This document shows, piece after piece, positions 2,597-31,380 of a stretch of 64,000 nt of DNA. The position numbers and the translations under genes were made by a program. Origin of the DNA: Prevotella sp. MGM1. GTDB taxonomy: Bacteria > Bacteroidota > Bacteroidia > Bacteroidales > Bacteroidaceae. The notes beneath the pieces were generated by a model. The model saw only the letters and a list, made by a program, of their open reading frames with translations. It was not told the origin of the DNA and did no database searches. Each line of letters starts with the position of its first letter. Within the stretch, counting starts at the first letter, position 1. The stretch spans positions 1 to 64,000 of the forward strand of contig NZ_BEWV01000059.1 of NCBI RefSeq assembly GCF_002933775.1. The letters run 5' to 3'.

Positions 2597-2606
2597 ATAA
2601 GCGTTT

Positions 2607-5423: not shown

Positions 5424-5460
5424 TATCCTATGGACAAAAAAACAATACAAATAAATTATT

Positions 5461-9952: not shown

Positions 9953-9959
9953 AATGTCG

Positions 9960-9967
9960 CAAAAATA
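9960..9967 (-). promoter_or_regulatory. Possible radA promoter -7 element
   Basis: TATTTTTG on the minus strand matches TAnnTTTG and ends 8 bases before the chosen radA ATG; no clear -33 element is visible. If used, the transcript would have almost no leader. Confidence 0.35.
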
Positions 9968-10003
9968 CAAAATATTTTTGTCTAACATGCATTTTGCGGT
10001 ATT

Positions 10004-12142: not shown

Positions 12143-12150
12143 TAATCGCC

Positions 12151-12168
12151 AAAACGAAACGAGCAAAA
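12151..12168 (+). repeat. Left terminal inverted repeat core
   Basis: AAAACGAAACGAGCAAAA, 8 bases inside the left end; inverted match at 16,309-16,326. It is probably a recombinase-binding site. Confidence 0.75.
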
Positions 12169-12330
12169 GTTGGAGATACAACCGCAAATTTAGTTCACAA
12201 AATCAAGGCTATTTAAGTTGTTGAATTATAACCAATAAACCTATAAATTAGGCTTATTCGTGTTACTTGTGTAACAAAAAAATAAATACGCTGTAAATCA
12301 ATACATTATAAAAAATGAACCTATCAAATA

Positions 12331-12348
12331 AAAACGAAAAGAGCACGA
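12331..12348 (+). repeat. Internal copy of the terminal repeat
   Basis: AAAACGAAAAGAGCACGA matches the left core at 15 of 18 positions in direct orientation, 180 bp inside it. Multiple end-sites resemble the arrangement of transposase sites in Mu-type phages. Confidence 0.5.
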
Positions 12349-12375
12349 GTTTAGCGGCTCAAATGTTAAAAATCA

Positions 12376-12412
12376 CCAGCGGCGGCCACATCGTTAAATG
12401 TGCCGCCGCTGG
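12376..12412. terminator. Strong stem-loop near the left end of the element
   Basis: CCAGCGGCGGC and GCCGCCGCTGG form a perfect 11-bp GC-rich stem around a 15-base loop. It is about 220 bp beyond the capsid gene stop on that gene's strand and may terminate it, although the T-run is weak. The rest of 12,187-12,632 shows no convincing gene. Confidence 0.55.
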
Positions 12413-12632
12413 CTCGTCTGTATGTGTAGGATACGAAAAACCTAATCTATTGGCGTTTTTAAGTATGCCAAAAATGTATGGTAACAAATACCCATTTGGG
12501 GAACAACATAACGCCGCCAAACGGCCTTTAGGCTCTTTGATTGATTCCCACTTTCATAGTGCTTTGCGGCGATTGTTTGAGCCGCTTTCGCACGTGCTTT
12601 TGTGCTTGTGTGCATAGGCTCAATTTTAGCGG

Positions 12633-13511
12633 TTATTCGGTCACTATATCACTGACAATCGCGCCTATTCCTTTGCCACGGATAGGCAGAGCGACAAAGC
12701 GTTTGTCAAAGCCTACAATCGTGCCGCGCTCTTTGGGGTCGTCAACGCTGGCGTACATATAAATGTCGCCGTCCGCTTTCATTACCTCTTTTGCATAGAA
12801 CGCCACCGAGGCGAACTGGTCTGTTGCCGCGTCGGCAAAAGGCACTTTTGTAAGTTTGCCGCCGACTGTCTTGTATGTCGGCATCTGGGCGAACTGATAA
12901 CAGCCAAAGCCCGCGAACTTGTGTGGCTCGCCGTCCTTTATGCTGGTAAGGTCTTTGAACAGCTCAATATCTTCCAGCAGCAGGTCGGACACGTGCTTGG
13001 GGTGCAGAATTATGTAGCGGTCGGTCAAAGGTATTTCGGCCTCATCGAAACGCTCTTTAAGCGTCAGAATGTCCGCAAAGGTCATGCGGCGGCGGCCTTT
13101 GACAACCGCGCCCGTTGTGAGTATTACGGGGGTATCTGTTGTGTCGGTGTTGGGGGCGTAGGCGTGTGCGGCTTTCATCGCAACGCTCTTGCGCAATGTC
13201 GCGCGGTGCTGGCCGATTACGCTCTCCAGCTTGTTATAGCTGTATTCGATTGCGTCAGGACGGCGGACGAGGGTGTTTTCGGTCTCGAACTTGGCGAGGG
13301 GGATTTCGTTGTCCTCATCGTCACGCTCTACAACCTTAATAGGATAGGTTGTGTTGTCTATCAACACTTTAGGATCAATGCCCGCCGCGGGAACATGTAA
13401 GCGGTCATTTTCCACAAATTCGGAATAATTGACAACTTTCTGCAAAAAGCTGTCATCGGGGTAAAATCCCGATAGGATTTGATTAACCCATACTTGTTTG
13501 TTTAATGCCAT
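12633..13511 (-). CDS. Phage major capsid-like protein
   Basis: This 292-residue protein lacks a signal peptide and membrane segments and starts ALNKQVWVNQILSGFYPDD, typical of HK97-fold coat proteins in Bacteroidales phages. Other features are the stretch TFADILTLKERFDEA followed by YIILHPKHVSDLLLED, as in coat proteins that cross-reference capsomers, and a beta-rich C-terminal third ending GKGIGAIVSDI. Its gene follows the prohead protease by 29 bp, the order found in HK97-type head modules (protease, then capsid). It would assemble a shell after protease maturation. No portal, packaging or tail gene accompanies it. The assignment rests on overall pattern plus context, not on a diagnostic motif; an encapsulin-like cage cannot be excluded. 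Confidence 0.72.
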   Translation of the reverse strand: MALNKQVWVNQILSGFYPDDSFLQKVVNYSEFVENDRLHVPAAGIDPKVLIDNTTYPIKVVERDDEDNEIPLAKFETENTLVRRPDAIEYSYNKLESVIGQHRATLRKSVAMKAAHAYAPNTDTTDTPVILTTGAVVKGRRRMTFADILTLKERFDEAEIPLTDRYIILHPKHVSDLLLEDIELFKDLTSIKDGEPHKFAGFGCYQFAQMPTYKTVGGKLTKVPFADAATDQFASVAFYAKEVMKADGDIYMYASVDDPKERGTIVGFDKRFVALPIRGKGIGAIVSDIVTE

Positions 13512-13540
13512 TCAGCAAATTAAGTTATTTTTTGTTGTGT

Positions 13541-14674
13541 TTACTTGTTGTTTTTTCTCGCTTCCTTGCGCTGTCGTTCCTTTGCTTGCTCCAGCAATTC
13601 GCGGTACACTTCGGGGTGCTCGCGCAGATATTCGGGGTTGTTTCTCCTGTACCACTCCAACGAGTGCGCCGTCACTTCCTCGCCCTTTTCAGCCTTTAAC
13701 AAACGGGCGTATAATTCGGGGTCGTTCTCCAGCTCTTGAGGGGCAAACTTGCGGTAATCGTCAAGCGTCCATTGTGAGCGGTCGGAGTGTGCCGCGCCGC
13801 CCTTTATAAACTCCATCGGCTTCGGCATGGGGCGTAACGTGAAGAGCAGCTCGCCCAAAGCCTTAGCCCCGATTTTTGCGCCTAATCGCTCAAAAATAGC
13901 TGTTTCACAGCCTAATAACTTGCGTTTGTTTACCGCGTCATTGATTAACCGCGATATTTCGGGGGCTTGTGCTTTTCGCTGGCCGTTGATAAAGTCGCGG
14001 AACGCTCCACGATTGCCACGCGCCAACGCTATGAACGTGCCACGTTGCGCCCCGTCAATATATCCGTTTGTAATTGCTTCGTCAACGGCTTCCTCGGGCG
14101 TTCCTTTGCCCTCTAAAGCCATTTTGACGGCTTCGATAATATCTTTATCATCCGCGCCACTTTCAAGCCCTAAAAGCGCAATTAAAGCCGCTTTCAAATC
14201 TTCGGGCGTGTTGTCGTTCTCCAGCTCTTTGAGGTTGTAAGCATAACCACCAGAGCGGCGGCACAATTTGACCGCGTTCTTATTGCTGGGAATATCAACT
14301 ATTGAAACCTCAATTAAACGGCTTTTAACGATTGTCTGAACGCCGTTTAAATCCTCGATAGTTATTACTTCAATGCCGATAGATACAGAGCGCAAAAAGC
14401 CTTTTTCAACTTGCTTCTTGACTGTTGCGGCCAATTCGGTGCTATCATCGAAAACGGCATCACCAAGCAGGCGGTTGTCCTCCTTGCGAATATTCTCCCA
14501 ACGGCCTATGACGTTGCCGTCTCGGTTGTGCATATAGAGCATAACGGGGTTGCGCTCAAACGCGGTTGTGTCTATACCCTCGGTCAGAACCACATTGCCG
14601 TAACTATTTACGGACTCATCGCTCAACACAAAGGTTATAGGCTTGTTAGTGTCTTGTTTCTCGTTTTTATCCAT
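13541..14674 (-). CDS. HK97-type prohead protease with long C-terminal scaffold-like extension
   Basis: The N-terminal 170 residues follow the S78/HK97 prohead protease pattern: FVLSDESVNSYGNVVLTEG, NPVMLYMHNRDGNVIGRW (with the likely catalytic His in MHN) and LRSVSIGIEV followed by a VSIVDIPSN strand. The remaining ~205 residues are helical and charged, ending ERQRKEARKNNK; such fused regions often act as scaffolding delta domains. I set the start at the ATG at 14674 (MDKNEKQD), because an upstream ATG at 14731 would add residues on top of the promoter. The gene is transcribed from a divergent control region and leads into the capsid gene 29 bp downstream. Confidence 0.8.
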   Translation of the reverse strand: MDKNEKQDTNKPITFVLSDESVNSYGNVVLTEGIDTTAFERNPVMLYMHNRDGNVIGRWENIRKEDNRLLGDAVFDDSTELAATVKKQVEKGFLRSVSIGIEVITIEDLNGVQTIVKSRLIEVSIVDIPSNKNAVKLCRRSGGYAYNLKELENDNTPEDLKAALIALLGLESGADDKDIIEAVKMALEGKGTPEEAVDEAITNGYIDGAQRGTFIALARGNRGAFRDFINGQRKAQAPEISRLINDAVNKRKLLGCETAIFERLGAKIGAKALGELLFTLRPMPKPMEFIKGGAAHSDRSQWTLDDYRKFAPQELENDPELYARLLKAEKGEEVTAHSLEWYRRNNPEYLREHPEVYRELLEQAKERQRKEARKNNK

Positions 14675-14699
14675 TGTTGTTTGTCTTAACTTGTTGGTG

Positions 14700-14732
14700 C
14701 AAAGGTACGCTCGCGCCGTGGCGCGCTCCAAA
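14700..14732 (-). promoter_or_regulatory. Promoter for the protease-capsid operon
   Basis: On the minus strand TACCTTTG (14707-14700) is a perfect -7 element with TTTG (14732-14729) 21 nt upstream. The leader to the protease ATG is about 20 bases. Confidence 0.65.
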
Positions 14733-14773
14733 AAGAGTGCAAATCTTTTACACTCTTTTTGTGCAAATCTTTT
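14730..14773. promoter_or_regulatory. Operator-like repeats between divergent promoters
   Basis: A palindrome AAAAAGAGTG / CACTCTTTTT (about 14730-14759) overlaps the -33 region of the leftward promoter, and GTGCAAATCTTTT occurs twice in direct orientation (14737-14749 and 14761-14773). This arrangement fits a repressor site controlling the switch between the two transcription units; the HTH protein at 15,364 is the natural candidate. Confidence 0.5.
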
Positions 14774-14800
14774 GAATTAGCCAATTTTGCGCCGTGATAT

Positions 14801-14831
14801 TTTGCAGGGTCGGATTATTTGTTTACCTTTG
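14801..14831 (+). promoter_or_regulatory. Consensus Bacteroidota promoter for the rightward genes of the element
   Basis: TTTG (14801-14804), 19 nt, then TACCTTTG (14824-14831): both elements and the spacing match the consensus exactly. Confidence 0.8.
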
Positions 14832-14837
14832 CACTAT

Positions 14838-14969
14838 CCTAAAAATTACATGTATGAACCAAGTTAAACAATTTCCCCAAAGATATTTGCGACCTATGGT
14901 GCGGAGTGCGGAAACGCCCCGGCGCTTTTCATGTAATAGCGTAGGACACCTAAGGGTCGCTATTTTTTT
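14838..14969 (+). ncRNA. Structured leader or small RNA ending in an intrinsic terminator
   Basis: Transcription from the promoter at 14,801 would start near 14,838. At 14,937-14,969 the RNA can fold TAGCG-TAGG-ACA-CCTA-...-CGCTA followed by seven T, an intrinsic terminator. An alternative pairing, GCGACC (14,889-14,894) with GGTCGC (14,955-14,960), would disrupt it. The start-site sequence CCTAAAA(A)TTACATGTATGAAC occurs twice, at 14,838-14,859 before the terminator and 14,977-14,997 after it. Either a short RNA is made, or this is an attenuator for the downstream genes. The two start sites are in the same frame, so a 142-residue protein starting at 14,854 is also possible. Confidence 0.5.
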
Positions 14970-14991
14970 ACAACTTCCTAAAATTACATGT

Positions 14992-15282
14992 ATGAACAAT
15001 TCTAACGAAGCCAACGCGCCCGCATGGGTTGTGGCTTGCTTGCGCCGTAAGTTGCGCAACGCCCTACGCGAGCAGGACGAACTCCGCGCACGGCTGGCAG
15101 TCCGCGCCCGTCAAGTGGTAGAACTGAACCTCGAAAAGAGCCAAGCGGAGAGAGTGAGCGAGTTTTGGAAAAAACAAGCTAACGAATACTTTGAGGGGCA
15201 AATAGCCGCACACCGCACAATCGGCGGTTTGCGCTACCTGTTAGAGCAGGCAGGCGGAACAATCCCTGAACATCTGAAATAA
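14992..15282 (+). CDS. Small coiled-coil protein of the element
   Basis: The 96-residue product (MNNSNEANAP...) is not one I recognise. Its centre (about residues 15-60) is a charged, Leu/Arg/Glu-rich heptad-like stretch, LRRKLRNALREQDELRARLA, predicting a coiled coil. The frame is open upstream to a second possible start at 14,854, but the repeated initiation region and an intervening terminator favour the ATG at 14,992. It is the first gene of the rightward unit, 81 bp ahead of the HTH gene. It may be a regulatory or scaffold accessory protein; function unknown. Confidence 0.55.
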   Translation: MNNSNEANAPAWVVACLRRKLRNALREQDELRARLAVRARQVVELNLEKSQAERVSEFWKKQANEYFEGQIAAHRTIGGLRYLLEQAGGTIPEHLK

Positions 15283-15363
15283 ACTCACCACGCGGCGGCG
15301 ATTGCTTTCGGGCGATTGCCGCCGCTTATTACCCTATGAAGCCCCAAACAACTAAAATGCTGA

Positions 15364-15843
15364 ATGACAAACAAAGAGCGCATAATTGAGTTATCAAAAT
15401 GTTTAGATCCTATTGAAGTGGCCGAAATATGCAACGTTTCGGCTGGCTACGTTTATAGGGTATTGCGCGAACATAATCCCAAAACATTAACCCTAACAAA
15501 TTACCTTAACGCCCTGCAACAAGGAATAACCAACAAAGAAGATTTAGCGGCTCTATTCGGAGTCGCGCGAACTACAATTTTTAGATTTGAACAAAAGCAC
15601 ATGGCGAAAGAAACAGTCGGTCAAATTCTCTATATCCTGAACGGCGATATAGACGAAGCGAAAAAAGCACAAGCGTTAACCAACGAGGAAACAGCAGAAC
15701 TCCTTCAGCTTCCCACACTGCCAAAGGTAACACACGAATTGCGGCAAATGCTTAACAAGTTAGAGAAGCACAAAAATCTAACATCATTTCACACGGAACT
15801 ATACAACAAGATTGCGGCGGCACTTAAAGAATTGAATTGTTAA
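15364..15843 (+). CDS. Helix-turn-helix protein of the element
   Basis: The 159-residue protein shows two helix-turn-helix-like segments: DPIEVAEICNVSAGYVYRVL (about residues 15-34) and KEDLAALFGVARTTIFRFEQ (about 57-76). A third weaker one, TNEETAELLQLP, is near 107. The C-terminal 45 residues are helical. It is soluble and likely a DNA-binding regulator; I infer that it controls the divergent promoters at 14,700-14,831. It has no catalytic motifs of a transposase or recombinase. It could alternatively be the DNA-recognition subunit of the mobilising machinery, since it also resembles the multi-HTH N-termini of transposition proteins. Confidence 0.6.
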   Translation: MTNKERIIELSKCLDPIEVAEICNVSAGYVYRVLREHNPKTLTLTNYLNALQQGITNKEDLAALFGVARTTIFRFEQKHMAKETVGQILYILNGDIDEAKKAQALTNEETAELLQLPTLPKVTHELRQMLNKLEKHKNLTSFHTELYNKIAAALKELNC

Positions 15844-21155: not shown

Positions 21156-23397
21156 GGAATTAGATGATATATTGGAATTGCTTGCCGGCCAAAGGCTTGG
21201 TTTGGCGATAGAGTATTTGGAGTCTTTCTTTTGCAAATATCCCGAACTCGGTTTTGCCGATGTGTTTGACGGAATAAAGAACGATTACCGTTTGATGGCC
21301 GATTATTGGGCGGGAGGTTATCGCGATCCTCAACTGGATGGGATATATCGCAGGCTTACACGGTATATGTACAGTCTTACGTCTAATGTGATGTTGCGAC
21401 ATATTATTGCACATGTTCCGTTTTTCTCGTCCTCTCATCGTGCGGTTGCGGCAAGTAGGCGCGACTGGACGGTCGCGGCGATACAGAGGGATTTGGAAGA
21501 GTTTGTGTCTGAGGTGGCAATGCTTCAATTTGAACCGGAGCATATAAAGAGGGAGAAAAAGGCTCGGATTTATGCCGGACATCAGTCTCTTATGTCGGAG
21601 CTGTTCAATAGAATATGGCTTTCGGAGCAGTGGACAGAGGAACAGTCGCACGCTTATGAGGAGCTGATGCTCTCGCCCACGGTGGATGTTAACGACAGGG
21701 CGTTGATGGTTTCAGCCGTGATGTTGTCGGCAATGAATGTCTTCGATGTCAATAAGCTCGGTCTCCTTATTAATGTATATCGCCGTAGCATGGATGATAA
21801 GGTCAGCCAGCGTGCCCTTGTCGGGTGGGTGTTTTCATTGGGAAAAGGAAAGGAACGTCTGTTTCCGGAAGAGAGGCAGATGGTGGAAGAGTTGTTGAAA
21901 TCAGAGAAAGTATGTGAGGAACTGACCGAATTGCAGATACAACTATTGTATTGCGTGAGTGCGGAAAGTGATAATAATACCATTCAGAAGGAGATAATTC
22001 CCGACTTGTTGAAAAACAATAATTTTCATATTACCCGCAATGGGATAGAGGAGCGGGACGAAGACCCGATGCAAGATATATTCCATCCGGAGGAATCGGA
22101 GAGTAATATGGAGAAGGTGGAGCAGAGTTTCCGGCGTATGGTGGATATGCAGAAAGCAGGTTCCGACATTTATTTCGGTGGTTTCTCTCAAATGAAGCGT
22201 TTCCCGTTTTTCGATAATATCAGCAATTGGTTTGTACCGTTCTATAAGGAGCATCCTGCGGTTGCGCCTGTTTGCGACAGTGGCAACAATGGGAAGCTTG
22301 TGCAGAAGATAATCGGTAGCGGTCCGTTCTGTGACAGCGATAAGTATTCTTTCGTGCTTGCTTTCACTCAGGTGATAGACCGCATACCGCAGAGTATGCG
22401 CGAAATGATTGGCAATGGCGAAGTGGCGGGTGTCGCGCGGATCATGGATATCGATAATCGGAGTGCGGCTTATATAAGAAGAATATACCTTCAGGATATT
22501 TATCGCTTCTTCCGTCTTTATCCTTCACGGACCCATTTCTACAATCCTTTCGATTATCGTAAGGGTGAAAAGTGGCATGCCGATTATATATTTTTTGCCC
22601 ACAGTATATTCAAGGGTACCGCCTTGTCTAAGAAAAACAGTGAGATCGTAACATTTTTGATGAAGCGGCGTATGTACGGTGAGGCGGCGGAAGTGTTGGA
22701 TTGCTATGCCGATAAGGATAAAGACTATCAGTACTATATGTTATGCGGCAATGTGTTGCTGCATAAAAAGAATGTTATTCTGCATGATTCTTTGTCGGGA
22801 TATACGGCTTCGGAGTGTTTTCGTAAGGCAATGGAATGTCGTCCGGATGACAAGCGGGCTTTAATGGGATATGCAAGGGCATGCTTTTATGAAGGGAATT
22901 ATGTCGAGGCATGTGATGCTTATGGAGAGTTGATGGAGAAAGAGCCTGATAAAAAGAGCTATCTGGTAGGTTACGGTGTGTGTCTTACCAATCTGGAGCG
23001 GTATGACGAGGCGTTAAAGGTGCTTTACAGGTTGGACTATGAGTATCCGGAAGATTATACGGTAAGGAGAGTTTTGGCGCGCGCTTTGGTCGGAGACGGA
23101 AAGTATGAGCAGGCCAAAAATATATATTTGAAGTTAAGCGGCGGTGACAATGACGATGCCGAAGATATTGTTAATTTCGGATTTTGCGAGTGGTTTGCCG
23201 GTAATAACCGTGAGGCCGCACGTCTTTTTGCACGCTATTTGAAAACGATATATCCCAACTCAACCACCGATTATTACCGTGAACGGGCTGAGGCGGAAAT
23301 AATAAGAAGTGAGCTTGGCTTTATTGAAAACCACGGTGTCGGTATGGTTGATATTCAGCTAATGCTTGATTTGATAAGCGTGGAAATTCTGCGATAG
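21142..23397 (+). CDS. Large TPR-repeat protein
   Basis: This 751-residue protein has no signal peptide or membrane segment. The N-terminal 500 residues are largely helical without a domain I recognise. The C-terminal third (about 535-725) holds several tetratricopeptide repeats: the ASECFRKAMECRPDDKRALM unit, the YVEACDAYGELMEKEPDKK unit and the YDEALKVLYRLDYEYPED unit. TPRs mediate protein contacts. The gene overlaps the upstream lipoprotein gene by 14 bp, so the two products probably work together. Its 3' end overlaps the converging acyltransferase gene by 43 bp. Related TPR proteins are common in Bacteroidales genomes but uncharacterised. Confidence 0.8.
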   Translation: MERNKELDDILELLAGQRLGLAIEYLESFFCKYPELGFADVFDGIKNDYRLMADYWAGGYRDPQLDGIYRRLTRYMYSLTSNVMLRHIIAHVPFFSSSHRAVAASRRDWTVAAIQRDLEEFVSEVAMLQFEPEHIKREKKARIYAGHQSLMSELFNRIWLSEQWTEEQSHAYEELMLSPTVDVNDRALMVSAVMLSAMNVFDVNKLGLLINVYRRSMDDKVSQRALVGWVFSLGKGKERLFPEERQMVEELLKSEKVCEELTELQIQLLYCVSAESDNNTIQKEIIPDLLKNNNFHITRNGIEERDEDPMQDIFHPEESESNMEKVEQSFRRMVDMQKAGSDIYFGGFSQMKRFPFFDNISNWFVPFYKEHPAVAPVCDSGNNGKLVQKIIGSGPFCDSDKYSFVLAFTQVIDRIPQSMREMIGNGEVAGVARIMDIDNRSAAYIRRIYLQDIYRFFRLYPSRTHFYNPFDYRKGEKWHADYIFFAHSIFKGTALSKKNSEIVTFLMKRRMYGEAAEVLDCYADKDKDYQYYMLCGNVLLHKKNVILHDSLSGYTASECFRKAMECRPDDKRALMGYARACFYEGNYVEACDAYGELMEKEPDKKSYLVGYGVCLTNLERYDEALKVLYRLDYEYPEDYTVRRVLARALVGDGKYEQAKNIYLKLSGGDNDDAEDIVNFGFCEWFAGNNREAARLFARYLKTIYPNSTTDYYRERAEAEIIRSELGFIENHGVGMVDIQLMLDLISVEILR

Positions 23398-24533
23398 GCC
23401 CATGTCCATGCCAATGGGATGCCTACGCCTGCCATTGAATATAGAATCCAGAAGTGATCCATATCCGAGTACTCGTGTATTACCATGTGGCAACCTATCT
23501 GTAAGTAATCCAAACCATAGTACCATATCTTTATCAGGCTCACAACCTTGTATGCCGCGATGTGGAACACGAATATGCACATTGTGTTATTGCCGCAGAA
23601 GACGAGGAAGTCTTTGACTCGGCCGTCATGTCTTGCAAACCAATCACTTATGTTGTATGTCATGAGGAAACCGCAAATGGCGGGCAAGGGTAGGGCGATG
23701 AAACCGTTGAAATCCATTCTCCATCCCATGCTTGACGGGGCAAAGCGTGAAAACAGGTAGACAACCGTTGCCGATACAATGGTCGCCAGCCACGTGACGC
23801 GGTATTTGTCTCTCAGTTGTCTGAATATAAATCCGCATCCGAAGAAGAATATTCCCATTATCTCGCGGTTGCCGCCTTGTATAAGGTTTATGATTTTCAG
23901 GCCTTCAAGGGTTTTCCATGATTGAACTACAAGAACTGTAACGCATATTATTACCGGTATTACAAGCGTGCGATAGACCTTTGGTTGTTCGTTTTCGATT
24001 ATATGGCCGGTGTTTTCATAATCTTTATTCCGTTTCTCTTTTGTCATGTATAGCCTGCCGATGAGGCTGTCTGTGATCTTGAACAGTACGAGATATGCTA
24101 TACTTGCAACGAATAATCCACGGAAAAACCAGAACGCACCGTTAAGAAACTGGTCGTATCCGCCCATCGCACAGACCATTGTCCACAGGTTCTGTTGTAT
24201 CTGGTGCCATGAGTAGGGGTGTGTCACTCCACCGGCGGCATTGCCGTATTGCTCGTTGAGTATTCCCGTTTTGAACATCAGGTTGTGTATGGCAAGAAAA
24301 AGGACAGACCATTTCAGAAACGGGATATACAGCCCTTTGACGCGCTTCTTCACAAATGTTGCCTCATCGTCAAGATATTTCAGGGAGAAGAAATATCCTG
24401 CCGCGATGAAGAACAGCGGCATGTGGAATTCATACAGAAAACTGCTCAGCGGACCGGGACAGTTGGCATGGCCGATAACCATCAGTATGATGCCGAATGC
24501 TTTGCAAATGGATATGGTCTCGTCTCTTTTCAT
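23355..24533 (-). CDS. Acyltransferase family 3 membrane protein
   Basis: The 392-residue protein is a polytopic membrane protein with the acyltransferase-3 pattern: KRDETISICKAFGIILMVIG followed by H and the motif FLYEFHMPLFFIAAGYFF near the N-terminus. About ten hydrophobic segments follow. Such enzymes O-acylate sugars of lipopolysaccharide, capsule or peptidoglycan at the inner membrane. It is the last gene of a minus-strand run (kdsA, kdsD, hybrid regulator, phospholipase D-like protein), 31 bp after the latter, which suggests envelope modification. Tail-to-tail overlap of 43 bp with the TPR gene is unusual but both frames are intact. Confidence 0.85.
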   Translation of the reverse strand: MKRDETISICKAFGIILMVIGHANCPGPLSSFLYEFHMPLFFIAAGYFFSLKYLDDEATFVKKRVKGLYIPFLKWSVLFLAIHNLMFKTGILNEQYGNAAGGVTHPYSWHQIQQNLWTMVCAMGGYDQFLNGAFWFFRGLFVASIAYLVLFKITDSLIGRLYMTKEKRNKDYENTGHIIENEQPKVYRTLVIPVIICVTVLVVQSWKTLEGLKIINLIQGGNREIMGIFFFGCGFIFRQLRDKYRVTWLATIVSATVVYLFSRFAPSSMGWRMDFNGFIALPLPAICGFLMTYNISDWFARHDGRVKDFLVFCGNNTMCIFVFHIAAYKVVSLIKIWYYGLDYLQIGCHMVIHEYSDMDHFWILYSMAGVGIPLAWTWAYRRISTLIKSSIS

Positions 24534-24564: not shown

Positions 24565-25824
24565 TTATAGGAAAGGAGTAAGCAGATGCGCGAACCATCC
24601 TACAAACTTTTTCCACGGTGTCCTGAACTCGTTCCATGTCTTTTCCGTCAGGTAGACACTTCTCTTTTTCTCGTTGTCAAACAGGTTGTCAAGTTCTTTT
24701 GTGGTGTTCCTGTCAATGATGACAGCATTCTCCTCGTAGTCCCAACTGAGGCTTCGGGCGTTCAGATTGGCGCTGCCAACGGTGCAGAAACGCCCGTCTA
24801 CCATTATTACCTTGGTATGATGAAATCCCGGTTGGAACAGCCATACATCCACTCCTTTCTTCATCAGTTTATGGACATTATAGAACACGCAGTCCGGAGT
24901 TAGCGGAATATCGCTTTTTGCCGATACGAGTATCTCTACTTTCACGCCCCGTTTCACAGCGTTTTTCAGTGCTTTTTTCAGTTTTCGGTTTAGTGTTAGG
25001 TAGGGGTTGATAAGTTTTATGGAATCTTTGGCACAGTCGATGGCGTTCACGTAGAAAGTCCTGATTATTTCGTTCGATGTTCTCGGCTCCCTGTTTATTA
25101 TTCCAACCGTCTTCTTTCCGGCTGTGGCGGTAGTGTCGGCGGCCAGCCCTTTGAATGTGATTGGTGCGTAAGTATTGAAATATTTTTGGTCCCAGATGTC
25201 CTGTCCGGTGACTTTTCGCCACATTTTCATGAATATCAGTTGCAACTGGCTTACAGCGCCGCCTTCTATCCGGCAGTGCATGTCGTGCCATTCGCCTACC
25301 TGTTCGGTGCCGTTTATGTAGTAATCGGCAACGTTCATTCCGCCCGTGTATGCTATATTACCGTCTATTACCACTATTTTACGGTGGTCTCTGTGAAAAA
25401 CATGGTTTATCCACGGGAAGCGTATGGGGTCGAACTCATATATCTCGATACCGTCTTCCCTTAAATTCTGTATGTGTTCCTTGAGTAACGGTTTGTTGTT
25501 GGAGTCATTGCCAAAGCCATCGAACAGCGCCCTGACCTCTACGCCTTCCTTTACTTTTTGTCTTAATATGTCGAAAAGCTCCGACGCGATTGAGTCGTTT
25601 CGGAAGTTGAAGTATTCAAGATGCACGCTGCTTTTGGCCTGTCTGATGGCTTTGAACATGTCGTTAAATTTGTCCTTGCCCGTTGTCAGAAGCGTTATGC
25701 TGTTGTCGTGTGTGAATGTTATCCCCTTTTTTTCCAATATATCAACTATCATCGAGTCGCTTGTTTGTGCGTTTGCCATGTTGCAACAGGCGAGCAACCC
25801 GATGATAAACATATAGTATCTCAT
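24565..25824 (-). CDS. Phospholipase D superfamily protein, cardiolipin synthase-like, with signal peptide
   Basis: The 419-residue protein contains two HxKxxxxD motifs: HRKIVVIDGNIAYTGGMN and HTKVIMVDGRFCTVGSAN, the catalytic pair of cardiolipin synthases and other phospholipase D enzymes. Cardiolipin synthase B/A condenses two phosphatidylglycerols. The usual pair of N-terminal membrane helices is missing; instead there is a cleavable signal peptide (MRYYMFIIGLLACCNMANA), so the enzyme is predicted to act in the periplasm or at the outer membrane. Its ATG overlaps the stop codon of the hybrid regulator gene (ATGA), indicating translational coupling, and the acyltransferase gene follows after 31 bp. 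Confidence 0.85.
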   Translation of the reverse strand: MRYYMFIIGLLACCNMANAQTSDSMIVDILEKKGITFTHDNSITLLTTGKDKFNDMFKAIRQAKSSVHLEYFNFRNDSIASELFDILRQKVKEGVEVRALFDGFGNDSNNKPLLKEHIQNLREDGIEIYEFDPIRFPWINHVFHRDHRKIVVIDGNIAYTGGMNVADYYINGTEQVGEWHDMHCRIEGGAVSQLQLIFMKMWRKVTGQDIWDQKYFNTYAPITFKGLAADTTATAGKKTVGIINREPRTSNEIIRTFYVNAIDCAKDSIKLINPYLTLNRKLKKALKNAVKRGVKVEILVSAKSDIPLTPDCVFYNVHKLMKKGVDVWLFQPGFHHTKVIMVDGRFCTVGSANLNARSLSWDYEENAVIIDRNTTKELDNLFDNEKKRSVYLTEKTWNEFRTPWKKFVGWFAHLLTPFL

Positions 25825-28800
25825 GCTTGTTCTCTGTGTTTTATTCTGTATTCAAGCGGCGACATGCCGTATTTTTCCTTAAATATGTAAGTAAAATTCT
25901 CTGGAGTCATAAATCCGAGGGTCGATGCCAGCTCTCCGACGTTTATATTGGTGCGTTCGAGCAATGTGCATGCGTGTTTCAGTCGCAACTCCCTTACCAG
26001 CTCTGCAGGTGTCTTGGATGTGATGCTTCTTATTTTATGGAAAAACGGTACCCGTCCCATTCCCATGGCCACGGCCATTTCTTCAAGGTTTATATGTCCT
26101 CTGCTCATGTTGTGAAGAACGTATTGTTCCACGTTTGCCATCAGTCGCCTGTCCATTAAACTGTTCATGGAGTAGTCGCCGATGGTCTCTCCATTCTTGT
26201 ATAAGGGCATATTGTTTGCCTTCTCGCCATTATCCTTGTTACGCTCTTGCGTATTTCCTGTATTGCCGGCATCATTATGATTTGCGGCGGATAATATTCT
26301 TTCCACGTCTTCATCCGATGTGATGCTCATCCCGTTGTCAGACATCATGACCGTGTTCATGCTTTCCAGCATAGGTATATCGTTACTGTTGCCGGTGATG
26401 TCCATTCCTTCTGCCGGTGCGAGTCCAAGCAACCGGTTAAACCTCATCGCCGCCTCCTGCATGTTGAACGGTTTCGCCAGATAGTCGTCGGCCGCCAACG
26501 TGATGTTCATGCTTTGCATGTCGGCCGGTGTCAGTACTCCGTCCGTCATGAGAACGAACTTTGTCTTTTCCGTCCTTGGATTTGTCTTTATTCTGTTGCA
26601 AAGCTCGCTTCCTGTCATTTCCTTCATGCCGTGCTTGCATACGATTATGTCTGCGGCGATGGCATTCATGTCTGCGGCGGCCGTTTCCATGCTGTTATAT
26701 GCCCTGATGTTGTATATATTGCGGAAGTGTGCCATGAAAAATCTCAAGAAATCATCGTTATCGTCTATTATGGCAATTGTGTATTGCATCGTAATGAGGT
26801 CTGTTCTCTTTGGTTTTATCTCGGCGGTCAGTATATCATCATTGCCATATTGTACCGACGCTATTTCTCCTTTGCTGTTAAATTGCAGTCTGTTGTCGGC
26901 GTTTTCAATGGCGCGTGCCTCTGGATTTTCGAGCGAGGTCTGCATTTCCGATATTCTCGTTATCACCTGCAATACTTGGAAATGAAGTGCGTTTATTTGC
27001 TCTTTTTCTTCCACAGTGCCTTCTTTCTCGGCCATATTGCCTATTATTGTGGTCATTCTCGACAGCGGCACGCGCAGTTCGTCGCTTGCGGCCTTTATCT
27101 CTTCCCGCTGAATCATCAGTTCCCTTATCACGGCTTTCTTTTTTGTCCATATATATGATATCTGTTTGGTGCCTATCATCCATATATATATAATGACGAT
27201 AAGTGAAACGGCATATAGCAGAATCATCCACCACGACATCCACCACGGGCGCATTATCTTTATTTCGAGAGTGCGTTCCCGGTCGCTCACGGTTCCGTCG
27301 GCACTTATTGCCTTGACGTGCAGTGTGTATGTACCGCTGGCAAGATCGGTGAACGTCACTCCATGCGTCAGCGGATCCCCGTTTTTCCAGTTGTCGTCCT
27401 TCCCTTCCATCCAGTACATGAAGAGTAGCCGTTCGCTCTGGTTGTAGTTTCCGGCCGCGAATTTGATGGTGAACGTATTCTGGTTGTCAGCCAGTTCTAT
27501 CCTGCTGCTTTCGTTGAGTGCTTGCGGCAGCGGAACATGCCCGCCATATTCATGTCCGGTAATTATCTCGGTGTCTCCGACAAAGAGTTGTGTAAGCATG
27601 ACGCGTGGCAGTGACGCCCTGTCATTCTTGACATTTTGTCTTATGCTGCTCACTCCATACAGACCGCCGAGCAATACGTTTCCGTCTTTCTTGGTATATA
27701 TGGCCCCGATGTTGAACTCGTTGCTTTGCAGTCCGTCCGATGTGTCATAGTTGTACAGTCCGTAGTTGAAAGAAGCCTCCTCGTGGTTTCTCTGCACCAC
27801 TACACGTGTCACTCCGTTGCTTGTCGTTATCCAGATGTTGTGGTTTTTGTCTTCCGTCAGTCCGCATACACAGTTGTTGGCAAGACCGTCTTTTTCCGTC
27901 AGATAGTCCAGCCTGTCTTTTTCCATGTCGAGTATGTTTACGCCCTCACGTGTTCCTATCCATACCAGTCCTCGCGAGTCTTCGATAACCTGTGTTATGT
28001 AGTTGTTGGTGAATTTTTGCATTCCGGTGGTTGTTCCGGTGAGTGCGCAGCGTTCGTTCGTAGACAGGTTTTGTATTATCAGACCCTCGTTTGTTCCGAT
28101 GAACATGTTATTCCCGTTTCCATAGAACAGGGCGGTGATGGTGTTTGTGCTCAGTTTCCCGTTCTCGCGGGTATATGTCGCGAATGTCTGCATCCTGGTG
28201 TTGAACACCTGCAATCCTCCTCTTGTCGCAATCCATAGGTTGCCCGACTTGTCGGTGCACAAGCCGTTGATGCGGTCGTCTATTAGCGTGTGCATGCTGT
28301 CTCTCGCCGCCGAGTATATCTTTGTGTCGCCGTCTTTGACGCGTGTCAGTCCGTTTCGTTTCGAGCCTATCCATAAACTGCCGTCCGGAGTTACCGCCAT
28401 TGCCGACACTTTTCGGCTGGCCAGCAGTCCGTCGTAGCCCACCACACCGTTGTCGCTCGTTCCATACCACACTTTTCCATCGGCATCTTGAGTGATAGCG
28501 GTGATGTCTCCATACAGTTCCGACTTGAATTTGTATATATTGTTTCCATAGAAAGCCAGTCCGGCCTTTTCCGTTCCCACCCACAGCAGGTCCGTATCGT
28601 CCACATACACGCTTTGTATGGCTGTTGTCTCGTTATAGTTGTCATGCTTGTTGGCGCTTTTCGGATTTACGAACTCCATCTCATGGTTGTTTACGTTCAT
28701 CCGTATCAGTCCGGCGGCATCGGTTCCTATCCATATATTGCCTTTCCTGTCGCCGGTTATCCCGTTCACAGCTCTGTCCACCTCAACCCCAGTCAGACCT

Positions 28801-29582
28801 ATGTTGTCGCCGATGGCGGTGTTCCATTTCTTTGTGTTTTTGTGGTATACCATCAGTGTCCCCTGTCCGTATAGCCATATATTGTCCATCTGGTCGGCAA
28901 AGGCTTTTAGTGTCGAGGAACTCCGCAGGCGGGCATCGGCCACCGTGCTTGTCTTCCATACGGTGCGTTGCTGCCGGGATATGTTGCAACATGCCAGTTT
29001 GCCGTCTTTGTATACGATTACCGCACCGTCGCGGCATTCGTTTATCGAGCAGATTTCCCCTTCCGGTATGCCGTGAGCGTCGTCAGAGTAGCCAAACTCG
29101 TAGAGCAGTTGTTGCTGCATGTTGTATGCCAGCACTCCCTTTTTGGGAACAGACATCCACAGGTTTTTATGGCTGTCTATATACACTATTTCCGGCATTT
29201 CGCTTATCCCCATCTTCACATATACTTGCCGCATGTCACGTTCGAAACTGTCCGACTGAGGGTGATATACGCACATGCCGGCCGGGGTCTGTATCCATAG
29301 GCATCCGTCGAGCGACTCCTGAATGCTCTTAATGTAACTGTCGGGCAGTGACGAACCGTCTTGCGAGTCAGACTGGTAGCTCTTGAACGTATAGCCGTCA
29401 TATCGGTAGAGACCGGCCGGGGTGCCGAGCCATACAAACCCGCGCGAGTCTTTCAATATACAGTTTATCTGGCTGCTGTTCAGGCCGTTTCTTGCGTCGA
29501 GCGTCTTGAACATGTATATTCCGGCTGCATATAGCGGGAGAAATGCCATTATGATGATCAGAACTTTCTTTAACGTCTTCAT
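25821..29582 (-). CDS. Hybrid two-component-like regulator with propeller sensor and AraC output, degenerate phosphorelay
   Basis: The 1253-residue protein has the layout of Bacteroidales hybrid regulators: N-terminal membrane helix, a double beta-propeller of Reg_prop repeats (GFVWLGTPAGLYRYDG, LLWVGTEKAGL, GLVWIGTREGVNILD and others), a Y_Y_Y domain (about 700-775), a membrane helix (about 782-802), a HisKA-like helix, a receiver (about 918-1040) and an AraC-type DNA-binding domain (about 1145-1250). Key residues are missing. The H-box reads ASDELRVPLS, with Asp834 in place of His; there is no ATPase domain between it and the receiver; and the receiver phospho-Asp position reads IIVCKHGMKEM (Lys983), although the acidic pair (IIDDND) and the Lys of LAKPF remain. 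It should therefore not be phosphorylated. I infer direct ligand-driven control of transcription through the membrane. It lies between kdsD and the phospholipase D gene. Confidence 0.88.
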   Translation of the reverse strand: MKTLKKVLIIIMAFLPLYAAGIYMFKTLDARNGLNSSQINCILKDSRGFVWLGTPAGLYRYDGYTFKSYQSDSQDGSSLPDSYIKSIQESLDGCLWIQTPAGMCVYHPQSDSFERDMRQVYVKMGISEMPEIVYIDSHKNLWMSVPKKGVLAYNMQQQLLYEFGYSDDAHGIPEGEICSINECRDGAVIVYKDGKLACCNISRQQRTVWKTSTVADARLRSSSTLKAFADQMDNIWLYGQGTLMVYHKNTKKWNTAIGDNIGLTGVEVDRAVNGITGDRKGNIWIGTDAAGLIRMNVNNHEMEFVNPKSANKHDNYNETTAIQSVYVDDTDLLWVGTEKAGLAFYGNNIYKFKSELYGDITAITQDADGKVWYGTSDNGVVGYDGLLASRKVSAMAVTPDGSLWIGSKRNGLTRVKDGDTKIYSAARDSMHTLIDDRINGLCTDKSGNLWIATRGGLQVFNTRMQTFATYTRENGKLSTNTITALFYGNGNNMFIGTNEGLIIQNLSTNERCALTGTTTGMQKFTNNYITQVIEDSRGLVWIGTREGVNILDMEKDRLDYLTEKDGLANNCVCGLTEDKNHNIWITTSNGVTRVVVQRNHEEASFNYGLYNYDTSDGLQSNEFNIGAIYTKKDGNVLLGGLYGVSSIRQNVKNDRASLPRVMLTQLFVGDTEIITGHEYGGHVPLPQALNESSRIELADNQNTFTIKFAAGNYNQSERLLFMYWMEGKDDNWKNGDPLTHGVTFTDLASGTYTLHVKAISADGTVSDRERTLEIKIMRPWWMSWWMILLYAVSLIVIIYIWMIGTKQISYIWTKKKAVIRELMIQREEIKAASDELRVPLSRMTTIIGNMAEKEGTVEEKEQINALHFQVLQVITRISEMQTSLENPEARAIENADNRLQFNSKGEIASVQYGNDDILTAEIKPKRTDLITMQYTIAIIDDNDDFLRFFMAHFRNIYNIRAYNSMETAAADMNAIAADIIVCKHGMKEMTGSELCNRIKTNPRTEKTKFVLMTDGVLTPADMQSMNITLAADDYLAKPFNMQEAAMRFNRLLGLAPAEGMDITGNSNDIPMLESMNTVMMSDNGMSITSDEDVERILSAANHNDAGNTGNTQERNKDNGEKANNMPLYKNGETIGDYSMNSLMDRRLMANVEQYVLHNMSRGHINLEEMAVAMGMGRVPFFHKIRSITSKTPAELVRELRLKHACTLLERTNINVGELASTLGFMTPENFTYIFKEKYGMSPLEYRIKHREQA

Positions 29583-29622: not shown

Positions 29623-30570
29623 TTATATCATGCATGAGTAGTGGTCTACCACTCCGAGAAGTCTTGAGTTTTCATCTGTCACGAGTACTGAGTGAACCTT
29701 GTATTTGTTCATGATACTCTGTATGTCTGTGATTTTTGTTTGTGGAGAAACCGTTTTCGGTGTTGTCGTCATTATATCGGCCACTGTGCGGTCGAAGAAC
29801 TCGGCTTGCCATTTCTCCATTGCCCTTCTGATGTCGCCGTCGGTGATCAGTCCGCATACAGCCCCGTCTTTTTCCGCCACTCCGAGTCCGAGTTTGCCTT
29901 TGCTGACGAGGATGATGGCCTCGCCGAGATGCATCTCCGGTGTGATTACAGGCATGTTGTCTTTGTGCATCACGTCTTGTGCCGTTGTCAGCAGTCTCTT
30001 GCCCAACTCGCCGCCGGGGTGGAACTGTGCGAAGTCGTTCGGCTGGAAGTGCCGTTTCCGCATCAGGGCCACGGCCAGAGCGTCGCCCATTGCCAACATG
30101 GCTGTGGTGCTGCTTGTCGGCGCGAGGTTGAGTGGGCACGCCTCTTTCTTGACGCTTACGTTGAGATGGCAGTTGGAGTATTTGGCGAGCAGCGATTTGG
30201 GATTGCCGCTCATGCCCACAATCGGTATCTGCATGTGCAGCACCATGGGAATGAAGCGCAGCAGCTCGTCAGTATGTCCGGAGTTTGATATGGCCAATAC
30301 CACATCGTCTTTCGTCATCACACCGAGATCTCCGTGGAACACGTCGAGCGGATTGATGAAAAACGAGGGAGTGCCGGTGCTCGAAAGGGTGGCCGCTATT
30401 TTAGCTCCGATGTGTCCGCTTTTGCCCACACCGGTGATTATCACTTTTCCCCGGCAGTTGTACATCAGCTCAACGGCCATGTCGAGGTTCTCGTCCATCT
30501 TGGGTATTAGGTCGAGCAGAGCCTCGGCCTCGTCTTTTATGCACTGTATGGCGTGTTCTCTTGTAGTCAT
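29623..30570 (-). CDS. kdsD: Arabinose-5-phosphate isomerase (KdsD/KpsF/GutQ family)
   Basis: KdsD interconverts ribulose-5-phosphate and arabinose-5-phosphate, the first step of Kdo synthesis for lipopolysaccharide. The 315-residue protein has an N-terminal SIS domain (VIITGVGKSGHIGAKIAATL, AISNSGHTDEL, the STTAMLAMGDALAVALM region with the DFAQFHPGGELGKRL stretch) and two C-terminal CBS domains (about 200-315). The order and length are those of the family. It follows kdsA by 54 bp on the same strand, so two consecutive Kdo genes are coupled; the hybrid regulator gene begins 40 bp after it. Confidence 0.93.
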   Translation of the reverse strand: MTTREHAIQCIKDEAEALLDLIPKMDENLDMAVELMYNCRGKVIITGVGKSGHIGAKIAATLSSTGTPSFFINPLDVFHGDLGVMTKDDVVLAISNSGHTDELLRFIPMVLHMQIPIVGMSGNPKSLLAKYSNCHLNVSVKKEACPLNLAPTSSTTAMLAMGDALAVALMRKRHFQPNDFAQFHPGGELGKRLLTTAQDVMHKDNMPVITPEMHLGEAIILVSKGKLGLGVAEKDGAVCGLITDGDIRRAMEKWQAEFFDRTVADIMTTTPKTVSPQTKITDIQSIMNKYKVHSVLVTDENSRLLGVVDHYSCMI

Positions 30571-30624: not shown

Positions 30625-31380
30625 TCACTCGGCCAGTCTCCTTACGAGATTTTCGAGCTTCGACAGCTCGAGCATGTTGGCTGCGTCGCTCAGTCCCTTG
30701 TCGGGGTCGGGGTGTACTTCAAAGAAATATCCCGTCGCTCCGAAGGCTTTGGCTGCCATTGCCATTTGCGGTACGAACCGTCTGTCGCCGCCGGTCTTGC
30801 CGTCGGCGCCGCCCGGACGCTGCACGCTGTGGGTGCAGTCCATTATCACTGTGGGCACTATGCCGAGCATGTCGTCGATGTTTCTGAAATCCACCACGAG
30901 GTTATTGTACCCGAACGTGTTGCCCCTTTCGGTAAGCCATACGTCTTTCGCCCCCGCGTCGCGCGCCTTTTCCACAGGATACCGCATGTCGTTGCCGCTT
31001 AAGAACTGTGCTTTCTTTATGTTGACCGTTAGCCCGGTGCGTGCAGCCGCAACGAGCAGGTCGGTCTGTCGGCACAGAAAAGCTGGTATCTGCAATACAT
31101 CGGCTACTTCTCCCGCAGCCTCGGCCTGGCAGCTTTCATGTATGTCCGTCAGTATTCTCAGCCCGTATCTGCTTTTTATGTCTGCCAGCATCTGCAAGCC
31201 TTTCTCGAGTCCCGGACCTCTGAATGAATGTATGGATGTTCGGTTGGCTTTGTCAAACGAAGCCTTGAAGATGATGTCAGTGCCAAGTGTATCGTTTATT
31301 CTCACAAGTTCTTGCGCCACTGTATTTAGAAGCTCGGCCGATTCTATTACACATGGGCCGGCGATTATCGTATTTCTCAT
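30625..31380 (-). CDS. kdsA: 3-deoxy-8-phosphooctulonate (Kdo-8-P) synthase
   Basis: KdsA condenses phosphoenolpyruvate with arabinose-5-phosphate to Kdo-8-phosphate in the cytoplasm. The 251-residue protein contains the expected motifs: IAGPCVIES, FKASFDKANRTS, RGPGLEKGLQ, DIHE, DVLQIPAFLCRQTDLL, FLSGNDM and DCTHSVQRPGG. Length is slightly short of the common 270-280, as in many Bacteroidota. It is the first gene of a five-gene minus-strand run ending at the acyltransferase, with a promoter-like element about 30 bp upstream of its start. Confidence 0.95.
   Translation of the reverse strand: MRNTIIAGPCVIESAELLNTVAQELVRINDTLGTDIIFKASFDKANRTSIHSFRGPGLEKGLQMLADIKSRYGLRILTDIHESCQAEAAGEVADVLQIPAFLCRQTDLLVAAARTGLTVNIKKAQFLSGNDMRYPVEKARDAGAKDVWLTERGNTFGYNNLVVDFRNIDDMLGIVPTVIMDCTHSVQRPGGADGKTGGDRRFVPQMAMAAKAFGATGYFFEVHPDPDKGLSDAANMLELSKLENLVRRLAE

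What the first reader, a model, noticed from the sequence alone, without database searches (positions are those of the whole stretch)
25821..29582. Hybrid regulator without ATPase, phospho-His or phospho-Asp
Seen: no HATPase_c domain, Asp834 for His and Lys983 for the receiver Asp, but propeller, Y_Y_Y, receiver and AraC domains are all present. A membrane-spanning regulator would then transmit ligand binding directly to DNA binding with no phosphate chemistry, a different mode from classical hybrid two-component systems.
Basis: partly seen in the sequence, partly recalled or inferred. Interest (0 to 1): 0.75.

Follow-up and report, generated by a model that had tools for sequence, protein, structure and literature searches.

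The report
Conserved phosphate-free membrane gene regulator
A bacterial membrane regulator whose relatives work by passing phosphate from a kinase part to a receiver part has lost the kinase engine and both phosphate sites, yet is kept in dozens of Prevotella relatives, which suggests that it switches genes without phosphate.

Summary
Window 25821-29582(-) encodes an intact 1253-aa protein: apparent signal peptide, propeller, Y_Y_Y, one transmembrane helix, a DHp-like hairpin, a receiver fold and an AraC domain, with no HATPase_c. Asp834 sits at the phospho-His site and Lys983 at the phospho-Asp site. It is not a decaying gene: orthologues occur in 92 of 239 genus genomes (88 matched over nearly the whole length). 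In 77 distinct sequences position 834 is always acidic (55 D, 22 E) and 983 is Lys in 75 of 76; the one exception (Met) carries Lys at the neighbouring metal-binding position. dN/dS against an 84% relative is about 0.06. The gene lies in a kdsA-kdsD-REG-cls gene row; 14 of 14 inspected relatives without it have kdsD next to cls. Relatives in other genera show graded losses; by my reading of the trees the ATPase was lost at least three times. Best reading: a phosphorylation-free, membrane-bound one-component regulator derived from a hybrid two-component system, with Lys983 standing in for the pocket Mg2+. Ligand, targets and the switching step are not shown. New variant of a known kind: an HTCS lacking the His, and Asp-less receivers, are already published.

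The parts
25821..29582 (-). REG: degenerate hybrid two-component regulator, 1253 aa
29517..29582 (-). apparent N-terminal signal peptide / first hydrophobic segment (about residues 1-22)
   Evidence: hydropathy peak at residue 7; sequence inspection; no signal-peptide program was run
27450..29516 (-). periplasmic propeller region, residues 23-711
   Evidence: Reg_prop, 7 stretches; similarity to solved HTCS sensors 4a2l and 3v9f
27255..27449 (-). Y_Y_Y domain, residues 712-776
27171..27230 (-). transmembrane helix, about residues 785-804
   Evidence: hydropathy peak at residue 786
26880..27137 (-). pseudo-DHp (HisKA-like) helical hairpin, residues 816-901
   Evidence: AF2 helices at 817-852, 857-883 and 887-901; weak HisKA match in 14 of 58 members
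27081..27083 (-). Asp834 codon, at the phospho-His site
   Evidence: alignment with HTCSs; D 55 / E 22 of 77
26427..26777 (-). pseudo-receiver domain, residues 936-1052
   Evidence: Response_reg; receiver fold in the AF2 model and its PDB matches
26634..26636 (-). Lys983 codon, at the phospho-Asp site
26148..26426 (-). long, poorly conserved, probably disordered linker between receiver and DNA-binding domain, residues 1053-1145
   Evidence: lowest conservation of any region; pLDDT under 50 over 1056-1138; REC-HTH distance 113-204 aa in 19 REG rows against 42-85 in 24 HTCSs
25824..26147 (-). AraC-type DNA-binding domain, residues 1146-1253
   Evidence: HTH_18; most conserved region together with the sensor
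30625..31380 (-). kdsA (KDO-8-phosphate synthase), first gene of the apparent operon
   Evidence: NCBIfam TIGR01362; synteny
29623..30570 (-). kdsD/kpsF (arabinose-5-phosphate isomerase)
   Evidence: NCBIfam TIGR00393; synteny
24565..25824 (-). cls-like phospholipase D / cardiolipin synthase with apparent signal peptide (by eye); start overlaps the REG stop by 4 bp
   Evidence: NCBIfam TIGR04265; overlap; spacing in relatives
23355..24533 (-). acyltransferase 3 family protein, last gene of the apparent operon
   Evidence: Pfam PF01757; found in 20 of 41 orthologous loci

Best explanation
REG is a conserved, phosphorylation-free, membrane-bound one-component transcription regulator descended from a hybrid two-component system. 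SHOWN: domain order; loss of HATPase; loss of phospho-His (always D/E) and phospho-Asp (Lys, once Met); conservation of the rest; gene row kdsA-kdsD-REG-cls. INFERRED: a ligand in the periplasm changes the propeller/Y_Y_Y dimer, the movement passes through the single TM helix into the pseudo-DHp hairpin (kept as dimer and signalling helix), and this changes the position or pairing of the two AraC domains. INFERRED: the receiver is a docking or dimerisation module with its pocket closed by the Lys983 ammonium group in place of Mg2+, so its state is not switched by phosphate.
For: 77 of 77 distinct sequences acidic at 834 and 75 of 76 Lys at 983; the same in the 47 loci found without peptide patterns. 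On a sensor-domain tree position 834 changes at least 10 times but only between D and E, position 983 changes once, the first pocket acid D940 never, K1037 never, T1013 once, while the second acid 941, the direct Mg2+ ligand of ordinary receivers (PMC12632262 section 7), changes 14 times among D/S/N/T/K: the pattern expected if a fixed Lys replaces the metal. The single 983 exception (L038, Met) has Lys at 941 instead, the place where the Asp-less receiver RitR carries its Lys (PMC4395418 passages). HATPase_c in none of 58 members. dN/dS 0.064 overall, 0.087 in the DHp part, 0.077 in the receiver. In the alpha3-beta4 loop the IP of the HTCS motif (IP in 23 of 24 HTCS rows) is lost: the Pro position is Lys in 72 of 76. 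Two other HTCSs in the same genome keep His and Asp, so the organism has the classical sites elsewhere. REG-cls spacing: ATGA overlap in 15 of 35 loci, within 54 bp in 33 of 35 (the in-frame ATG nearest to the stop was taken).
Against: No biochemistry, expression data, ligand or target exists. The AF2 model of the cytoplasmic part has pTM 0.35, so it says nothing about how the domains sit together. The long, weakly conserved REC-HTH linker argues against a rigid chain of coupling. The receiver keeps D940, T1013 and K1037, so some unknown ligand or modification of the pocket is possible. The Lys shift in L038 is a single case. A 2025 review says that the mechanisms which switch bacterial pseudo-receivers remain a mystery (PMC12632262 abstract).
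Confidence: 0.66

Rival explanations
1. REG works only together with a partner: an ATP-binding propeller protein without H-box, receiver or DNA domain (the ~1040-aa paralogues), or an ordinary HTCS, forms mixed dimers with it and supplies an ATP-dependent or phosphate-dependent step.
For: Short propeller paralogues (ATPase-only, sensor-only or AraC-only tails) occur in 60 of 239 genus genomes by my sorting of the matches, and 55 of these 60 also have REG. The ATPase-only type has domains complementary to REG.
Against: 37 of 92 genomes with REG show none of them at the cut-off used, including this genome, where a search with an ATPase-only protein finds only REG and two ordinary HTCSs (assembly 92% complete). 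The short paralogues form their own clade beside ordinary HTCSs, and the co-occurrence was not corrected for relatedness. REG has no Asp to be phosphorylated.
Confidence: 0.13
2. REG binds DNA constitutively and is not ligand-gated; pocket Lys and the lost loop motif lock the output on, and control is by gene dosage or by anchoring DNA at the membrane.
For: Substitutions in the S/CHIP motif make B. theta HTCS DNA binding phosphorylation-independent (PMC11253607 passages); REG lacks the motif. AF2 gives no fixed arrangement.
Against: The sensor is about as conserved as the DNA domain (mean identity to the window 0.67 and 0.70 over 58 rows) and has dN/dS 0.048, hard to explain if no signal is read.
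Confidence: 0.14
3. A decaying HTCS pseudogene.
For: Three catalytic features are missing. One of the 41 orthologous GTDB loci (L072) carries the gene as two pieces. Three of the 92 genus matches report a stop inside the match; in G007 it is the gene's own end (frame of 1257 aa covers residues 1-1251), the other two (G119, G188) were not read but likewise match to residue 1252.
Against: 88 of 92 genus matches run from within the first 21 residues to beyond residue 1249, replacement residues are fixed, dN/dS 0.064, kept gene neighbourhood.
Confidence: 0.02
4. Phosphate chemistry is retained at another residue, for example a Ser/Thr/His in the receiver, linker or DHp part, by a separate kinase.
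For: The genome has 22 HATPase_c matches; Ser/Thr phosphorylation and Lys acetylation of the Asp-less regulator GlnR are reported (PMC12632262 passage).
Against: The conserved neighbours tested include no kinase; no substitute acceptor was evident to me in the alignment, though I did not search for one systematically.
Confidence: 0.05

Closest known systems
Bacteroides hybrid two-component systems (HTCS; solved sensors 4a2l, 3v9f; B. theta BT4124 class)
   Same: Same propeller + Y_Y_Y sensor (4a2l E 2e-62), one TM helix, DHp-like hairpin, receiver fold, AraC domain, same order.
   Different: No HATPase_c, no phospho-His, no phospho-Asp, loop motif lost, REC-HTH linker about twice as long, changed first recognition helix (GRVP in 71 of 76 REG sequences, mostly SRV in HTCSs).
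BT4236, an HTCS with Gln in place of the phospho-His (PMC11253607 passage)
   Same: An HTCS without the phospho-His and with a non-consensus S/CHIP motif, suggested by its authors to be phosphorylation-independent.
   Different: The passage I read does not say that its ATPase domain or receiver Asp is missing; REG has lost all three, and the losses are fixed across dozens of species.
Asp-less or pseudo-receivers (ALR/PsR), e.g. RitR (PMC4395418 and PMC12632262, passages and sections)
   Same: Receiver fold without the phospho-Asp; first acid and pocket Lys kept, second acid free; a basic residue in the pocket proposed to replace the metal.
   Different: Basic residues at the Asp are rare (Arg+Lys+His together 4% of ALRs, PMC4395418); here Lys is fixed in a family and the receiver sits in a membrane regulator with a pseudo-DHp.
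Transmembrane transcription regulators / hybrid TTRs (PMC10269533, passages)
   Same: Membrane-bound one-chain regulators; that survey counts proteins with one or more core two-component domains as hybrid TTRs.
   Different: The passages I read do not describe a conserved family with this set of losses.

Membership tests
Hybrid two-component system (HTCS) | periplasmic Reg_prop propellers and Y_Y_Y domain | tested here: met
Hybrid two-component system (HTCS) | HisKA/DHp domain with phospho-acceptor His | tested here: not met
   hairpin present, but D/E at the site in 77 of 77
Hybrid two-component system (HTCS) | HATPase_c catalytic domain | tested here: not met
   none of 58 members; none in REG at E up to 1
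Hybrid two-component system (HTCS) | receiver with phospho-acceptor Asp | tested here: not met
   Lys in 75 of 76, Met in 1
Hybrid two-component system (HTCS) | C-terminal AraC/HTH_18 DNA-binding domain | tested here: met
   58 of 58
Hybrid two-component system (HTCS) | S/CHIP motif in the receiver alpha3-beta4 loop (typical, not universal) | tested here: not met
   window has EKTK; Pro position Lys in 72 of 76. In my 24 HTCS rows HIP is complete in 12 and IP is present in 23
Pseudo-receiver / Asp-less receiver | receiver fold without phospho-Asp | tested here: met
Pseudo-receiver / Asp-less receiver | activity without Asp phosphorylation | not testable with these tools
   needs biochemistry
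Pseudo-histidine kinase | HK-like protein lacking one or more catalytic functions | tested here: met
   no His, no ATPase, DHp-like hairpin kept
Transmembrane one-component regulator | sensor, membrane span and DNA-binding domain in one chain | tested here: met
Transmembrane one-component regulator | ligand directly controls DNA binding | not testable with these tools
   ligand and targets unknown

The most novel reading that the evidence does not exclude
A charge-swapped relic phosphorelay acts as the switch: the always-acidic residue at the former His (834) and the fixed Lys at the former Asp (983) pair across the DHp-receiver interface as a make-or-break salt bridge, so that ligand-driven movement of the DHp helices docks or releases the receiver and its AraC domain without phosphate.
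Probability: 0.15. Interest if true: 0.8.

Novelty: new variant of a known kind. Interest (0 to 1): 0.58.

Why it matters
It is a natural experiment in turning a phosphate-driven sensor into a phosphate-free one. A whole family with fixed replacement residues, graded relatives and ordinary HTCSs in the same genome makes two open questions testable: how pseudo-receivers are switched, and whether transmembrane signals in HTCSs need phosphate at all. The kept place beside the KDO and cardiolipin-synthase genes hints at an envelope-related role and not the usual glycan locus (inference).

Tried and rejected
Decaying gene: rejected on conservation, dN/dS and kept synteny. Obligate ATPase-only partner: considered because of the striking overlap (55 of 60 genomes), rejected as obligate because 37 of 92 REG genomes, including this one, show none at the cut-off. 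Autoregulation footprint: in the 400 bp upstream of kdsA I compared 40 REG-bearing sequences (39 loci and the window) with 15 REG-less loci. The most enriched 8-mers were A/T-rich (ATTTTTGC in 19 of 40 against 0 of 15; TGCAAAAA in 21 of 40 against 1 of 15); they were not tested further, and relatedness was not corrected for. In an alignment of 10 close upstream regions only a TAnnTTTG-like promoter element (name recalled) stood out. DHp-receiver docking by AF2: pTM 0.35, uninformative; no model coordinates were among the script files, so the Lys983 pocket contact could not be measured. Deep grouping: the quick tree joins REG, g2 and g8 (92, not starred) and REG+g2 (99, starred); the careful tree of 32 rows does not resolve g8, and a long-branch HTCS (L033) falls beside REG+g2, so I claim only REG as a clade and REG+g2 as likely. 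YN00 dN/dS failed for four of seven parts and dS for the HTH part could not be computed; dS is near saturation, so ratios are rough. Literature searches for an earlier description showed none in their listings, but only open-licence PMC papers are held.

Selections and limits: one search kept ORFs over 50% identity and over 900 aa (61, of which 57 distinct, plus the window = 58), which leaves out the split L072. Alignment A2 leaves out L059 (truncated contig) and L038 (the Met983 exception) and adds two g2 relatives, so the 58-member Pfam count does not include L038. The 77 sequences come; of the 92 REG genomes only 45 (the window's included) were read from their own loci. recruits by six exact peptides, one of which holds Lys983; a check found that none of the recruited sequences in my set carries that peptide, and the 47 loci found without peptides give the same result (one of the 47 repeats the L038 sequence). 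The HTCS comparison rows were picked for length over about 1250 aa. The 60 genomes with short paralogues are my sorting by open-frame length and score (G081 counted in spite of a 1377-aa frame because it matches at 63% to the query's end); one search scored three candidates a genome, and only the regions (16, of which L121 is an ordinary HTCS) were read.
Full report
WHAT IS THERE. Window 25821-29582, minus strand, is one intact 1253-aa frame. It carries an apparent signal peptide, propeller repeats, a Y_Y_Y domain, one TM helix (hydropathy peak at residue 786), a receiver and an AraC domain; HATPase_c and HisKA are not listed at E up to 1. Its sensor resembles solved HTCS sensors (4a2l, E 2e-62). 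An AF2 model of the cytoplasmic part gives a helical hairpin where the DHp should be, a receiver fold and the DNA domain, with a disordered linker; pTM is only 0.35. Foldseek matches receivers and AraC domains.

THE MISSING SITES. In an alignment with 14 full-length HTCSs the window has Asp834 for His and Lys983 for Asp, and all 14 keep both. Over 24 HTCS rows chosen for length, all 24 keep H and D, the TM-REC distance is 270-318 aa against 121-125 in 19 REG rows, and the REC-HTH distance is 42-85 against 113-204. The two other Y_Y_Y proteins found in this genome are HTCSs that keep both sites. HATPase_c matches none of the 58 members of the family alignment, HisKA 14 of 58 weakly, Response_reg and HTH_18 58 of 58 (the 58 include two g2 relatives and leave out L038 and L059).

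CONSERVATION. Orthologues occur in 92 of 239 genomes of the genus (88 of them matched over nearly the whole length, 4 over a part) and in 41 of the 72 loci found in GTDB contigs, all 41 from Prevotella, Xylanibacter or Prevotellaceae records. In 77 distinct sequences: 834 D 55, E 22; 983 K 75, M 1, gap 1; D940 76 of 76; T1013 75 of 76; K1037 76 of 76; 941 D 46, S 18, N 7, T 4, K 1. In the 47 loci found by whole-genome search without peptide patterns: 834 D 35, E 12; 983 K 46, M 1. On a tree of sensor domains the least numbers of changes are: 834, 10 (only D and E); 983, 1; 940, 0; 1037, 0; 1013, 1; 941, 14. In an ordinary receiver 941 is the acid that binds Mg2+ directly (PMC12632262 section 7). 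Its freedom, with the others fixed, fits a pocket closed by Lys and not by a metal. The one distinct exception to Lys983, L038, has Lys at 941; RitR, an Asp-less receiver, has Lys at that position and its authors suggest that it may replace the metal (PMC4395418 passages). One case is a hint, not proof. A free second acid is also common in pseudo-receivers at large (PMC12632262 section 7; PMC4395418), so that point alone does not single out Lys983. dN/dS against the 84% relative L037 is 0.064 over the gene (NG86; dS near saturation).

COUPLING. Most B. theta HTCSs are thought to hold the DNA domain down through an S/CHIP motif in the receiver (PMC11253607 passages). REG has EKTK there, with Lys at the Pro position in 72 of 76. 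Among my 24 HTCS rows HIP is complete in 12 and IP is present in 23, so the clear contrast is at IP. The first recognition helix begins GRVP in 71 of 76 REG sequences where most HTCS rows have SRV, so a conserved and different DNA target is likely (inference).

NEIGHBOURHOOD. kdsA, kdsD, REG, cls and, in 20 of 41 loci, an acyltransferase lie in a row; kdsD was found in 40, kdsA in 39 and cls in 39 of 41, the misses (L050, L059, L062, L100) lying where the held locus ends. The nearest in-frame ATG of cls overlaps the REG stop as ATGA in 15 of 35 loci and lies within 54 bp in 33 of 35. In 14 of 14 inspected genus genomes without REG, kdsD runs directly into cls (14 of the 18 found were fetched; in L179 cls lies in two frames). 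In genus g2 one relative (L191) is followed by a gene that reads like a sugar transporter (by eye) and then cls; four g2 genomes without a REG match have kdsA, kdsD, a gene of 489-496 aa that I did not identify, and cls; in g8 one relative (L192) sits beside cls. REG therefore looks like an old, patchily lost neighbour of cls; that is inference.

A LADDER OF LOSSES. Relatives in other genera show other stages, read by eye from the sequences and the alignment. Two from g2 lack the ATPase and have Q or E for His and E for Asp. One from g8 lacks DHp and ATPase but keeps the receiver Asp. Two others from g8 have a receiver with Ser for Asp. Two from g13 have neither DHp nor receiver. Within the window's genus a separate clade has propeller proteins with only an ATPase domain, only a tail, or only an AraC domain with a DHp remnant. 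Trees place g13 and the short-paralogue clade each among ordinary HTCSs, apart from REG. The ATPase was therefore lost at least three times by my reading of those trees; the deep position of g8 is unresolved.

PARTNERS. Short paralogues are in 60 of 239 genus genomes by my sorting; 55 of these have REG, 37 REG genomes have none, 5 have the paralogue alone, 142 neither (Fisher p 2e-23, not corrected for relatedness). This genome shows none (92% complete). They may interact where both occur, but REG seems not to depend on them in general.

HOW IT PROBABLY WORKS. Shown by sequence: canonical His-Asp phosphate transfer within REG is not possible. Inferred: ligand movement in the propeller dimer passes through the TM helix to the pseudo-DHp pair and changes how the two AraC domains meet DNA, while the receiver is a module whose pocket is closed by Lys983. 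The steady negative charge at 834 and the fixed Lys at 983 also allow a salt bridge across the old phosphotransfer face; I could not test this.

NOVELTY. Receivers lacking the Asp make up 2.0% and HisKA domains lacking the His 0.9% of those sampled in PMC12632262 (section 6), and a phosphorylation-independent HTCS (BT4236, Gln for His) has been suggested (PMC11253607). What I did not find in my searches (listings, with passages of five papers) is a conserved family that has lost ATPase, His and Asp together with fixed replacement residues. I rate it a new variant of a known kind.

Noticed in passing
L107, L108, L110, L111, L112, L113, L115-L120 (loci of unnamed genus genomes): Twelve propeller + Y_Y_Y + TM proteins of about 1020-1075 aa that end in an ATPase domain (HATPase_c confirmed by Pfam in the 4 of 12 scanned; the rest by eye) with no H-box, receiver or DNA domain; ATP-binding sensors without a phosphate acceptor.
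   Followed up: partly
L112:4019-6634, L114:349-2955, L117:1093-3699: Propeller + TM proteins of about 870 aa with only a short acidic EEAV-type tail, like the tail of the ATPase-only proteins; in L112 and L117 side by side with one.
   Followed up: partly
L193:5639-8923, L195:5369-8647, L106:642-3758, L109:725-3832: Propeller-TM-AraC proteins with no receiver and no DHp (L193, L195), or with a His-less DHp remnant and no receiver (L106, L109): simpler one-component descendants of HTCSs.
   Followed up: partly
L191:5921-12547, L231-L234: In genus g2 an extra gene (489-496 aa; sugar-transporter-like by eye in L191, not identified in the others) sits before cls, and REG stands beside it in L191; a possible target.
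   Followed up: no
window 8561-15843: Proteins resembling phage DnaB-like helicase, major head protein and head maturation protease (PHROGs, 4 of 6 proteins scanned matched): a small prophage or satellite-like element.
   Followed up: partly
window 77-6333: Two PAS histidine kinases in tandem (the second with a solute-binding domain) followed by a cupin-AraC regulator, all on the + strand.
   Followed up: partly
L072; L190: Two copies that look broken: REG in L072 is split into two frames, and the g2 relative in L190 (G327) has an in-frame TAG near its start; decay or assembly error.
   Followed up: no
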